Source of the DNA: Rhodobacter calidifons | GTDB lineage: Bacteria > Pseudomonadota > Alphaproteobacteria > Rhodobacterales > Rhodobacteraceae | Assembly: GCF_011174775.1 (NCBI RefSeq) | Contig: NZ_JAANHS010000006.1 | Span: 186,001 to 250,000 of the forward strand | DNA length: 64,000 nt | Reading direction: 5' to 3' | In this document: in pieces, positions 37,568-39,760 of the stretch | How the letters are laid out: the number at the start of each line of letters is the position of its first letter | Position numbering within the stretch: position 1 is the stretch's first letter | Position numbers and translations under genes: made by a program | The notes under the pieces: generated by a model | Database searches by the model: none | Told to the model about the DNA's origin: nothing | Seen by the model: the letters and a program-made list of their open reading frames with translations, nothing else

Positions 37568-38716
37568 TCAGGCCTGGCGTGGCTTCAGGTGGTCAAGGCC
37601 CCAGACCAGAAGCCCCACGACCAGCCCCCAGAAGGCCGCCCCGATGCCCAAGGCGGCCAGGCCCGAGGCGGTGACGACCACGGTCAGCGCGGCGGGCAGG
37701 CGCTGGTCGGGCTGGGCGAAAGCGCCGGTCAGCGCCCCGGTCAGGGGCGACAGAAGCGCGAGGGCGACGAGGGCGGCCACCACCTCGGCGGGAAGGGCGG
37801 CGATCAGGTCGAGGACCGTCGGGCTGAGCAGGCCGAGGAGCGTCCAGGCGGCGGCGTAGAAGAGGCCCACCAGCCAGCGGCGGTCGCGGTCTGGGTGGAC
37901 ATCGGGGCCAAGGCAGATCGCGGCGGTGATCGCGGCCATCGAGACAGTGTGCGCGCCGAAGAAGGCGGTGACGGTGGAGATCACCCCGGTCGTGGTCAGG
38001 GCGGCGCTGACGGGCGGCTCGTAGCCCGCCGCGCGCAGGGTGGCGAAGCCGGGCAGGTTCTGCGAGGCCATGGTCACAAGGTAGAGCGGCAGGCCAAGGC
38101 CGAGGATCACAGACAGGCGGAAGGCGGGGGCCACGGGTTCCAGTCGGGGCCCGGCAAGGTGGACGGCGGAGAGGTCCGATCCGGTGGCAAGCGCCAGCAC
38201 GATCCCGGCGGCGAAGGCAGCGAGGACGGCGAAAGCCGGGTTCCAGAGCCGGACGATCAGGAAGACCGCGACCATCGGCAGGACGAGGGCGGGGGCGCCT
38301 TGCGCGGCGGTGGCGCCTTTCAGGCAGAAGGGCAGGAGGACCCCGCCCAGCATGGCGGCGGCGATGCCGTCGGGGATGCGGGCGACAAGGGCGCCAAGCG
38401 GGCGGATCAGGCCGGTCGCGGCGATCAGAAGACCTGCTGTGACGAAGGCCCCGACGCCCTCGGCGAAACTGATGCCGGAGGTTGCGGCGATCAGGGCCGC
38501 GCCGGGGGTGGACCAGGCGAGGACGACCGGGACCTTCGATCTGAACGACAGGAGCGCGGAGCCGATGGCCTTGCCGAGGCTGATCGCCAAGAGCCAGCTT
38601 GCAGTCTGCGCCGGGGTCGCGCCAAGCGCCGTGGCGGCGGTCAGCAGGATGGCGACCGAGGAGGCATAGCCCACCAGGGCTGCCACGGTCGCGGCCGAGA
38701 TCATGGAAAGGCGCAT
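37568..38716 (-). CDS. BenE-family benzoate/proton symporter-like transporter
   Basis: The 382-residue membrane protein has about twelve hydrophobic segments and the BenE pattern (LSMISAATVAALVGYASSVA start; STPGAALIAATSG; LVTMASQNLPGFATLRAAGY). Relatives import benzoate with protons, but no aromatic-catabolism genes are nearby, so the substrate is uncertain. The start at 38716 fits the family N-terminus; the open frame continues upstream into the small-RNA array, which is not coding. The gene is downstream of the RNA array on the same strand. Confidence 0.88.
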   Translation of the reverse strand: MRLSMISAATVAALVGYASSVAILLTAATALGATPAQTASWLLAISLGKAIGSALLSFRSKVPVVLAWSTPGAALIAATSGISFAEGVGAFVTAGLLIAATGLIRPLGALVARIPDGIAAAMLGGVLLPFCLKGATAAQGAPALVLPMVAVFLIVRLWNPAFAVLAAFAAGIVLALATGSDLSAVHLAGPRLEPVAPAFRLSVILGLGLPLYLVTMASQNLPGFATLRAAGYEPPVSAALTTTGVISTVTAFFGAHTVSMAAITAAICLGPDVHPDRDRRWLVGLFYAAAWTLLGLLSPTVLDLIAALPAEVVAALVALALLSPLTGALTGAFAQPDQRLPAALTVVVTASGLAALGIGAAFWGLVVGLLVWGLDHLKPRQA

Positions 38717-38762
38717 CCTGTCCCCTGGGCGTGCCGGATGATCCGGTCGGCGGACTATTCCG

Positions 38763-38865
38763 CGCCGGCTTTCGGGCCGCAAGGGGGGGAAAGGGCGGCG
38801 GCTCCCAGGGAGGAGGAGGGGGAGCCGCCGCAAAGTCGGTCATCCCGGGAGGAGGATGGGACGCC
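38763..38865 (-). ncRNA. CcsR-type small RNA, unit 5
   Basis: Last unit of the array. Hairpin A (38837-38863) exposes CCTCCTCCC; hairpin B (38795-38831) has a perfect 12-bp stem GCGGCGGCTCCC with loop CCTCCTCCTCCCT; a GCGGC/GCCGGC hairpin follows (38764-38780). It is the most divergent in its outer stems, which remain complementary. Confidence 0.8.
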
Positions 38866-38875
38866 CGATACCGGT

Positions 38876-38975
38876 CGGGCCTCTTGCGGCCCGGAATTCA
38901 GCGCGGCGGTGCCCAGGGAGGAGGGCGGGCACCGCCGCATGTACCAGGCAACCCGGGAGGAGGGTGGGCGCCCGA
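38876..38975 (-). ncRNA. CcsR-type small RNA, unit 4
   Basis: Hairpin A (38947-38973) carries ACCCTCCTCCCG in its loop; hairpin B (38903-38938) has stem GCGGCGGTGCCC with loop GCCCTCCTCCCT; the third hairpin CGGGCC/GGCCCG is at 38876-38893. Confidence 0.82.
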
Positions 38976-38981
38976 TCACTT

Positions 38982-39080
38982 GGGCCCTTCGGCCCGGAAT
39001 GGGTGCGGCGATGCCCAGGGAGGAGGAGGGGGCATCGCCGCGGGATCACAGGACCCTAGGGAGGAGGAGAGGGCCAAGGA
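38982..39080 (-). ncRNA. CcsR-type small RNA, unit 3
   Basis: Hairpin A (39052-39075) has stem GGCCCT/AGGGTC and loop CTCCTCCTCCCT; hairpin B (39005-39041) has stem GCGGCGATGCCC; a GGGCC-GAAG-GGCCC hairpin closes the unit at 38982-38995. Confidence 0.83.
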
Positions 39081-39087
39081 TCAAGAT

Positions 39088-39180
39088 CGGACCTTGCGGC
39101 CCGGAGATTTGCGCGGCGGTGCCAGGGAGGAGGAGAGGCACCGCCGCTGTTATCAGAGGACCCGGGAGGAGGTGGGTCAT
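39088..39180 (-). ncRNA. CcsR-type small RNA, unit 2
   Basis: Hairpin A (39159-39178) has stem GACCC/GGGTC and loop ACCTCCTCCC; hairpin B (39113-39147) has stem GCGGCGGTGCC with loop TCTCCTCCTCCCT; the third hairpin CGGGCC-GCAA-GGTCCG is at 39088-39103. Confidence 0.83.
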
Positions 39181-39191
39181 CCGATGCTTGT

Positions 39192-39290
39192 GGGGCTGTC
39201 TAGCCCCGGATGGGAGCGGCGATGCCCAGGGAGGAGGAGGGGCATCGCCGCGTATCGCTTCGGTCCCAGGGAGGAGGAGGGGACCTCACG
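39192..39290 (-). ncRNA. CcsR-type small RNA, unit 1
   Basis: First unit, ten bases after the ccaF1-type stop codon, so cotranscription is likely. Hairpin A (39262-39285) has stem GGTCCC/GGGACC and loop CTCCTCCTCCCT; hairpin B (39216-39251) has the perfect 12-bp stem GCGGCGATGCCC; GGGGCT-AGAC-AGCCCC follows at 39192-39207. CcsR RNAs of R. sphaeroides are stress-induced and act through their CCUCCUCCC loops, which resemble the anti-Shine-Dalgarno sequence. Confidence 0.85.
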
Positions 39291-39295
39291 AATTC

Positions 39296-39511
39296 TTACT
39301 TGCCGTAGGCGGCCTCGCGGGCGATTTCGGCGATCCGCAGCCGCGAGATGCCGAGGTCGGCCAGTTCGCGGTCGGTCAGGGCGTTCAGCTCGGCCACGGT
39401 CCGGGCATAGACGCGGCGCTGGGCGATTGCGGTCAGGACGGCGTCCTTCAGATCGGCCAGGCGGTCGGCGATACCCTTGCGGGCGATGGAAGTGGTGTTT
39501 GCATAAGCCAT
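39296..39511 (-). CDS. ccaF1: DUF1127 small protein upstream of CcsR array
   Basis: The 71-residue protein begins MAYANTTSIARKGIADRLAD and ends with the DUF1127 core ELNALTDRELADLGISRLRI. The ATG at 39511 follows GAGG by ten bases; a TTG at 39520 in the same frame is less likely. In R. sphaeroides the DUF1127 protein CcaF1 is encoded immediately before the CcsR RNAs, has this length, and has been described as an RNA-binding factor affecting the maturation of those RNAs. Order, strand and spacing here are the same, so I use that name. Transcription is probably from a stress (RpoH-type) promoter; I cannot pick one out with confidence in the 249-base gap to mrp. Confidence 0.9.
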   Translation of the reverse strand: MAYANTTSIARKGIADRLADLKDAVLTAIAQRRVYARTVAELNALTDRELADLGISRLRIAEIAREAAYGK

Positions 39512-39760
39512 GTCACTCAAGCCTCTTCGGTTCGGTCAGCAACGTTCTGTCGCGCTGTTAGGGGTAACATGAGGCTTATGCTGCGGATGCACAATAGCGG
39601 CTCTCGGCAATGCTGCCATGCAGCATGCGCATGGCTGAGGTCACGGAAATGTCATGATTTACCAAGGTCTTCGCCGAATTTTTGAGCATCTGGTCAACGG
39701 ACCTTGCCCTTGCGCCGAAACGCTACGACCTTAGTGCAAATCTTCAGCGGAGTTGAAACG

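What the first reader, a model, noticed from the sequence alone, without database searches (positions are those of the whole stretch)
38763..39511. Five-unit CcsR sRNA array behind a ccaF1-type gene
A DUF1127 gene is followed by five tandem units of about 104-113 nt. Each has two hairpins that display CCUCCUCCC in the loop and a third GC hairpin that could be a processing or termination stem. The arms differ from unit to unit (GCGGCGATGCCC, GCGGCGGTGCC, GCGGCGGCTCCC) but stay complementary, which is covariation evidence for structure. From memory the R. sphaeroides locus has four RNAs (CcsR1-4), so five units would be an expansion. Ten anti-Shine-Dalgarno-like loops in one transcript could titrate GGAGG sites widely.
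Basis: partly seen in the sequence, partly recalled or inferred. Interest (0 to 1): 0.9.

Follow-up and report, generated by a model that had tools for sequence, protein, structure and literature searches.

The report
Stress sRNA array with shared switch
This is a five-copy version of a known family of small bacterial RNAs that can stick to the ribosome-binding sites of messages; five copies is ordinary, but its promoter carries a conserved two-part DNA element that, in its own genus, also sits beside a redox-type regulator gene and another small RNA.

Summary
The array is real: on the minus strand a DUF1127 gene (39511-39296) is followed by ten CCTCCTCCC loops in five two-hairpin units, period 104-108 nt. 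The hairpins covary. All five units match Rfam CcsR1, below its gathering score. It is a CcsR-like (cuckoo) RNA locus, a known kind.

The claimed expansion is not supported: over 395 family genomes the pair count runs from 0 to 25; 38 have five and 69 more.

New here is the promoter. A bipartite element, TGCTGC-ATG-GCAGCA-TT, about 12 nt, TATTGTGCAnnYGCAGCA, lies upstream of these arrays: 23 of 29 loci, shuffle control 1 of 1450. In the window's genus the palindrome recurs between a LysR regulator and a SorX/SorY-like sRNA. The regulator's best solved relative, 9HH1, is Agrobacterium LsrB. I propose that an LsrB/VtlR-type regulator drives the array. Outside the genus the second site is mostly not an exact copy, so this is a testable inference.

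The parts
39609..39625 (-). Box 1, palindrome TGCTGC-ATG-GCAGCA-TT (TGC-N9-GCA, LysR-type layout), about 54-68 nt upstream of the inferred transcription start
   Evidence: Near-exact second copy at G000:C55:147492; 31 sites listed in 16 of 16 genus genomes searched, backwards control 0; <=3 mismatches in 23 of 29 array loci, control 1 of 1450
39579..39596 (-). Box 2, TATTGTGCAnnYGCAGCA; its TTGTGC is a -35-like hexamer
   Evidence: Alignment of upstream regions; 11-12 nt after box 1 in all but one (L055) of the 23 loci with box 1; coordinates
39565..39571 (-). -10-like CATGTTA, 17 nt after TTGTGC
   Evidence: Recurs as yATnTT in many relatives (by eye); coordinates; start site inferred, not mapped
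39296..39511 (-). ccaF1-type gene, 71-aa DUF1127 protein
   Evidence: Pfam PF06568; 94% identical in Tabrizicola thermarum
39216..39285 (-). Unit 1: hairpin 1 (39262-39285) and hairpin 2 (39216-39251)
   Evidence: RF02791 47.7 bits
39113..39178 (-). Unit 2: hairpin 1 (39159-39178) and hairpin 2 (39113-39147)
   Evidence: RF02791 63.9 bits
39005..39075 (-). Unit 3: hairpin 1 (39052-39075) and hairpin 2 (39005-39041)
   Evidence: RF02791 36.6 bits
38902..38970 (-). Unit 4: weak or ambiguous hairpin 1 (limits by eye) and hairpin 2 (38902-38939)
   Evidence: RF02791 39.4 bits
38795..38868 (-). Unit 5: hairpin 1 (38836-38868) and hairpin 2 (38795-38831)
   Evidence: RF02791 49.0 bits
39193..39206 (-). 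Spacer hairpin after unit 1
   Evidence: z -1.07
39088..39103 (-). Spacer hairpin after unit 2
   Evidence: z -2.29
38982..38995 (-). Spacer hairpin after unit 3
   Evidence: z -2.29
38876..38893 (-). Spacer hairpin after unit 4
   Evidence: z -2.11
38754..38782 (-). Promoter-like TTGCGG-N17-AATAGT in front of benE (read by eye)
   Evidence: AATAGT or GATAGT recurs in 8 of 11 named relatives' tails (by eye)
37568..38716 (-). benE-type transporter gene directly behind the array
   Evidence: Pfam BenE 3.8e-105

Best explanation
The locus makes one transcript from a promoter at about 39560: a short leader, the small DUF1127 protein, and five tandem CcsR-like RNAs. By analogy with R. sphaeroides, RNase E cuts the transcript, with the DUF1127 protein involved, into CcsR-like sRNAs, here about 100 nt each. 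Each shows two CCUCCUCCC loops that pair with GGAGG Shine-Dalgarno sites and lower translation or stability of target mRNAs under stress. Repetition adds dose and spare loops: the loop is invariant while the stems drift with compensating changes. The promoter is activated through a bipartite LysR-type element; the most likely activator is the genome's LsrB/VtlR-like regulator, whose own gene neighbours a SorX/SorY-like anti-SD sRNA behind the same palindrome. Shown here: sequence, predicted structure, covariation, family match, unit-number spread, the conserved element, the shared palindrome in the genus. Inferred: transcription, processing, targeting, the regulator's identity. The confidence of 0.8 is for the CcsR-like operon with a conserved cis element; for the LsrB-type regulator as its activator it is 0.4.
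For: Motif and array statistics; covariation; CcsR1 matches for all five units at E 4e-15 to 5e-7; DUF1127; published R. sphaeroides mechanism (passages); element conservation. For the regulator: of 30 genus loci with the palindrome, 15 precede ccaF1 and an array and 12 lie between the LTTR and a SorX/SorY-like sRNA; regulator closest to LsrB 9HH1, E 1.5e-73, next 3.4e-31; in S. meliloti LsrB drives the neighbouring AbcR1 from an upstream LTTR box (PMC8844928, passages). By eye, the plus strand at 39629-39641 (GCATGGCTGAGGT) fits the rhizobial consensus GCAT-N3-TG-N3-T, but it has only seven fixed letters and is not kept in all relatives.
Against: No unit reaches the Rfam gathering score. R. 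sphaeroides papers assign the ccaF1-CcsR promoter to RpoHI/RpoHII, and the passages that I saw mention no LTTR. The palindrome next to the LTTR is mainly a feature of the window's genus: of 30 family loci, own included, 5 have a site within 3 mismatches in the 250 nt behind the LTTR (control 16 of 1500); of 28 class loci outside the family, 3 do (L187, L191, L203; no control made). Box 1 itself does not fit the rhizobial consensus (by eye). 3 of 30 genus sites are unexplained. L052 has a CcaF1-type gene and an array but no element. No expression data.
Confidence: 0.8

Rival explanations
1. The array is a plain RpoHI/RpoHII stress operon as in R. sphaeroides, and the bipartite element belongs to another activator or to the sigma-factor promoter itself, with no LsrB-type control. 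(This rivals only the regulator step of the best explanation.)
For: Papers name an RpoHI/RpoHII promoter (passage); the palindrome next to the LTTR is mostly not conserved outside the genus; S. meliloti AbcR2 needs RpoH1, not LsrB (passages).
Against: Box 1 lies upstream of the -35-like hexamer and is palindromic; in the genus its copies are nearly confined to ccaF1 (15) and LTTR-sRNA (12) sites, 27 of 30 loci.
Confidence: 0.45
2. The repeats act as part of the ccaF1 mRNA itself (3' UTR stabiliser or Rho/RNase buffer) more than as released trans-acting sRNAs.
For: Array directly behind the ORF; a sigma-70 scan found no promoter in it; stable GC hairpins.
Against: Invariant anti-SD loops over drifting stems and the published CcsR target flhR (passage) favour base pairing in trans.
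Confidence: 0.12
3. A lineage-specific expansion for titrating many messages.
For: Ten loops in one array.
Against: Five units is common: 107 of 395 genomes have five or more pairs, up to 25.
Confidence: 0.05

Closest known systems
CcsR1-4 / ccaF1 operon of Rhodobacter sphaeroides (Rfam RF02791)
   Same: DUF1127 gene then tandem two-hairpin RNAs with CCUCCUCCC loops; all five units match RF02791
   Different: Five units, below gathering score; sigma factor and processing untested here; R. sphaeroides DNA itself was not identified among the genomes searched
Cuckoo RNA family / CIN1 locus (Reinkensmeier and Giegerich 2015, not held; described in passages of PMC10253847 and PMC4504443)
   Same: Hairpins with a conserved loop and unconserved stems, with a short DUF1127 gene
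   Different: Nothing found that departs from it, apart from the promoter element, whose treatment in that paper I could not check
alpha-r14 / NfeR1 sRNA (RF02344)
   Same: Same anti-SD loop motif; weak matches, best 51, 37.5 and 31.3 bits against a gathering score of 58.8
   Different: Three-hairpin sRNA (passage), no array behind ccaF1 described there
lsrB/vtlR-abcR1 module of rhizobia (PMC8844928, passages)
   Same: LysR gene next to an anti-SD sRNA with an upstream LTTR box; regulator similar to LsrB 9HH1
   Different: In the window's genus the sRNA matches SorX/SorY; no ar15 match above gathering in 20 loci of LTTR relatives; the box is shared with the CcsR array

Membership tests
CcsR-like/cuckoo RNA (CIN1) locus | Hairpins with CCUCCUCCC in the loop and variable stems | tested here: met
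   hairpin 1 of unit 4 uncertain
CcsR-like/cuckoo RNA (CIN1) locus | Directly downstream of a short DUF1127 gene | tested here: met
Rfam RF02791 CcsR1 | Score at or above gathering (65.3 bits) | tested here: not met
   Best 63.9 bits; only 2 of 41 genomes searched exceed it, so the threshold is strict; this bars filing under RF02791 as curated, not the likeness
CcsR of R. sphaeroides | Co-transcription with ccaF1 and RNase E maturation | not testable with these tools
   needs RNA data
CcsR of R. sphaeroides | RpoHI/RpoHII promoter | tested here: inconclusive
   TTGTGC-N17-CATGTT recurs in relatives; no RpoH model was used; sigma-70 scan empty
LsrB/VtlR regulator (for the LTTR at G000:C55) | Closest to LsrB among solved LysR proteins, beside an anti-SD sRNA | tested here: met
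   orthology by tree not tested
LsrB/VtlR regulator (for the LTTR at G000:C55) | Binds the ccaF1 promoter | not testable with these tools
   needs EMSA or footprint

The most novel reading that the evidence does not exclude
CcsR arrays of Rhodobacteraceae are a branch of an LsrB/VtlR redox regulon: one LysR regulator, present in all 41 family genomes searched, switches on both its neighbouring SorX/SorY-like (AbcR-like) sRNA and the distant ccaF1-CcsR array, giving a coordinated anti-Shine-Dalgarno response from what is, in the window's genus, nearly a two-site regulon.
Probability: 0.4. Interest if true: 0.65.

Novelty: new member of a known kind. Interest (0 to 1): 0.42.

Why it matters
The array itself adds one more member to a known sRNA family and shows that unit number varies widely. 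If the promoter reading holds, it joins sRNA systems that the papers seen here treat apart (CcsR and SorX/SorY in Rhodobacter, AbcR and LsrB/VtlR in rhizobia) under one regulator, and gives a DNA element conserved over much of the family for testing how redox state reaches CcsR.

Tried and rejected
Rejected: five units as an expansion. Rejected: third hairpin as terminator. Considered: a second CcsR locus in this genome; the exact pair pattern finds only these five, and a sixth weak RF02791 match at C33 (E 0.025) is treated as chance, because the same search also rings in 6 of 14 control genomes. Rfam scan for ar15 beside LTTR relatives (19 class loci and one family locus) gave no match above gathering in 20 loci. 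NCBIfam: none of the best 25 of 56 matches of the LTTR reaches its cut-off. Genome-wide targets: GGGAGGAGG-N3-12-ATG occurs 10 times (backwards control 2), once inside the array's own antisense. Of the nine others, six with longer frames went to Pfam: a short-chain dehydrogenase, a lytic transglycosylase, a DsbD/cytochrome c biogenesis protein, a DUF2147 protein and a PD-(D/E)XK protein, and one without a match. This is a candidate list only; SD strength is not controlled for. My note says 16 ccaF1-type genus loci and gives both 11 and 12 for the LTTR type; one search gives 15 and 12, which I use.

Papers: only passages or search listings were seen. Billenkamp 2015, Reinkensmeier and Giegerich 2015 and Gruetzner 2021 are not held, so I cannot say that the promoter element is absent from them. 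Searches for a CcaF1-LysR or an LsrB-Rhodobacter-sRNA link: 2 papers; 6 papers. Of these I read passages of PMC12501420, PMC7486931 and PMC11975290 and saw no such link; the others I saw as listings only.

Full report
What is there. On the minus strand a 71-aa DUF1127 gene (39511-39296) is followed by ten exact CCTCCTCCC loops, all ten of the window's copies. They form five units, each with a short hairpin 1 (5-6 bp; uncertain in unit 4) and a long hairpin 2 (11-14 bp); first loops start 105, 105, 104 and 108 nt apart. Weak GC hairpins lie behind units 1-4; the region behind unit 5 folds no better than chance. The array folds far better than shuffles (z -10.4). Across 38 units (5 of the window, 33 of the 39 listed, from 12 named loci) both loops are invariant, while five pairs of hairpin 1 and five of hairpin 2 show changes on both sides, and the covariation score exceeds all 500 shuffles and all six slid structures. 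Relatedness inflates the shuffle control, as that tool warns; the slid control is the fairer one.

What kind it is. Rfam CcsR1 matches the units at 63.9, 49.0, 47.7, 39.4 and 36.6 bits (E 4e-15 to 5e-7 in a 1.1-kb search), under the gathering score of 65.3. Of 41 genomes searched with this model, 35 have a match at E up to 1 but only 2 exceed the gathering score; weak matches also occur in 6 of 14 control genomes. With the DUF1127 gene in front, the locus has the layout described for CcsR/cuckoo loci (PMC10253847 passages). The genome is close to Tabrizicola: the best named match of its CcaF1 is T. thermarum, 94%.

Unit number. Two loops 20-45 nt apart were counted in 395 family genomes (counts copied by hand into). 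304 have at least one pair. On the richer strand: 91 have none, 62 one, 48 two, 46 three, 41 four, 38 five and 69 more, up to 25. The count uses exact motifs and the whole genome, so it includes some chance pairs and misses altered loops; where loops are evenly spaced, neighbouring loops count as extra pairs. In 22 same-genus arrays with CcaF1 found (of 23 loci), 4-14 loops follow, some perhaps cut by contig ends. Five units is therefore ordinary. The largest count, G186, has 26 loops in a repeat of about 140 nt behind a DUF1127-type ORF.

The promoter. In an alignment of the 200 nt upstream of ccaF1 from the window and 42 relatives (several of them the same species under two ids), one block stays conserved beyond the genus: TGCTGCATGGCAGCATTG, about 11 nt, TATTGTGCAnnYGCAGCA, then a CATGTTA-like stretch; L085 lacks it and L083 and L084 depart in part. 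Box 1 is a palindrome of the TGC-N9-GCA form; TTGTGC-N17-CATGTT is a plausible -35/-10 pair (coordinates). Of the 30 loci that fetched for CcsR pairs alone, one had too little upstream DNA; of 29, 23 carry box 1 within 3 mismatches (1 of 1450 shuffled regions), 18 of these with box 2 within one mismatch, at 11-12 nt in all of the 23 but L055. Of the six misses, three (L046, L050, L062) have no CcaF1 match, L059 has CcaF1 on the far side of its loops, L065 has box 2 and a box 1 at 4 mismatches, and L052 lacks both. Box 1 at up to one mismatch is in 58 of 120 family genomes, backwards control 0. A looser bipartite pattern is in 72 of 120, backwards control 0: in 67 of 91 genomes with a CcsR pair and 5 of 29 without (Fisher 1e-7); cut at two pairs, 53 of 72 against 19 of 48 (3e-4). 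That last test is per genome; it does not show that element and array are neighbours.

The second site. In the window's genome the only other near-exact copy of box 1 lies directly behind the stop codon of a LysR-type regulator, and about 80 nt further an sRNA matches SorX (48.5 bits, gathering 46.6) and SorY (47.6, gathering 111). Of 25 genomes searched at up to one mismatch, the 16 of the genus all have a site and the 9 of other families none; backwards control 0; 31 sites are listed. Of 30 fetched, 15 precede ccaF1 and a CcsR array, 12 sit behind that LysR gene (91-100% identical), and 3 are neither. All 12 match SorX or SorY: 7 above SorX gathering, 5 below it with E at most about 1e-6; of the other loci scanned (L127, L146 and seven of the wider family) none gave a match above gathering. 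That sRNA has its own CTTGTT-N17-CTATT-like promoter, an ACCTCCCT stretch and a hairpin with a T run.

Who the regulator is. Its best solved match is 9HH1, E 1.5e-73 over 287 residues; the next is 3.4e-31. PMC11975290 states that 9HH1 is LsrB (passage). The same paper says that LsrB is confined to Rhizobiales (passages); yet one relative at E below 1e-90 is in each of 41 of 41 family genomes, and at E below 1e-50 in 46 of 77 class genomes, two of them of the family. Whether these are LsrB orthologs was not tested by a tree. Behind it, 29 of 30 family loci fetched have a CCTCCCTGTTGGACT-type stretch, hairpin and T run; Rfam SorX or SorY matches at E up to 0.01 in 15 of 16 of them scanned. This resembles the rhizobial lsrB-abcR1 layout, where LsrB activates the neighbouring sRNA from an upstream box (PMC8844928 passages).

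Against it. Outside the genus the palindrome is usually not found behind the regulator: within 3 mismatches in 5 of 30 family loci, own included (control 16 of 1500), and in 3 of 28 class loci within 250 nt (no control). Box 1 itself does not fit the rhizobial consensus. Of 30 wider-family loci fetched with a box-1 match, 15 precede CcsR loops, one (L179) sits by the LTTR, and the other 14 are DUF1127-like, partial or unexplained. So the link from this regulator to the array is an inference at about 0.4, while the conserved element itself is firm.

Mechanism. Shown: sequence, predicted structure, covariation, family resemblance, promoter conservation. From published work on R. sphaeroides, seen as passages: co-transcription, RNase E and CcaF1 in maturation, interaction with Hfq, target flhR, role under oxidative stress. 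Inferred: that all this holds here, and that repeated loops act by dose. The array ends without a T run; a C/T-rich tract and a promoter-like TTGCGG-N17-AATAGT lead into benE (by eye).

Noticed in passing
L049 (G186:C1:334949-336119): Array of 26 CCTCCTCCC loops behind a DUF1127-type ORF, built largely from a near-identical three-loop repeat of about 140 nt; other high counts in G306, G046, G085, G138, G355, G362.
   Followed up: partly
G000:C55:147512-148414 (L118, L185): LysR regulator most like LsrB (9HH1), found in 41 of 41 family genomes although a paper calls LsrB unique to Rhizobiales; followed by a SorX/SorY-like sRNA in 29 of 30 family loci.
   Followed up: yes
L158, L166, L167, L170, L178: A variant palindrome, TGCTGCATCGCAGCATT, recurs in other family genomes with no CcsR loops or LTTR match beside it; neighbouring genes not identified.
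   Followed up: no
L174, L160: DUF1127-type genes with box 1 in front but no CcsR loops behind (L160 by a crude motif only), perhaps the same regulator acting on the protein gene alone.
   Followed up: no
window 38782-38716: A benE-type transporter gene starts just behind the array with a promoter-like sequence; similar starts follow the array in most of 11 named relatives (by eye, not translated).
   Followed up: partly
L083, L109: Public records named Exiguobacterium profundum and Mesoflavibacter encode CcaF1-like proteins, L083 with 8 loops behind it; the organism names look wrong.
   Followed up: no
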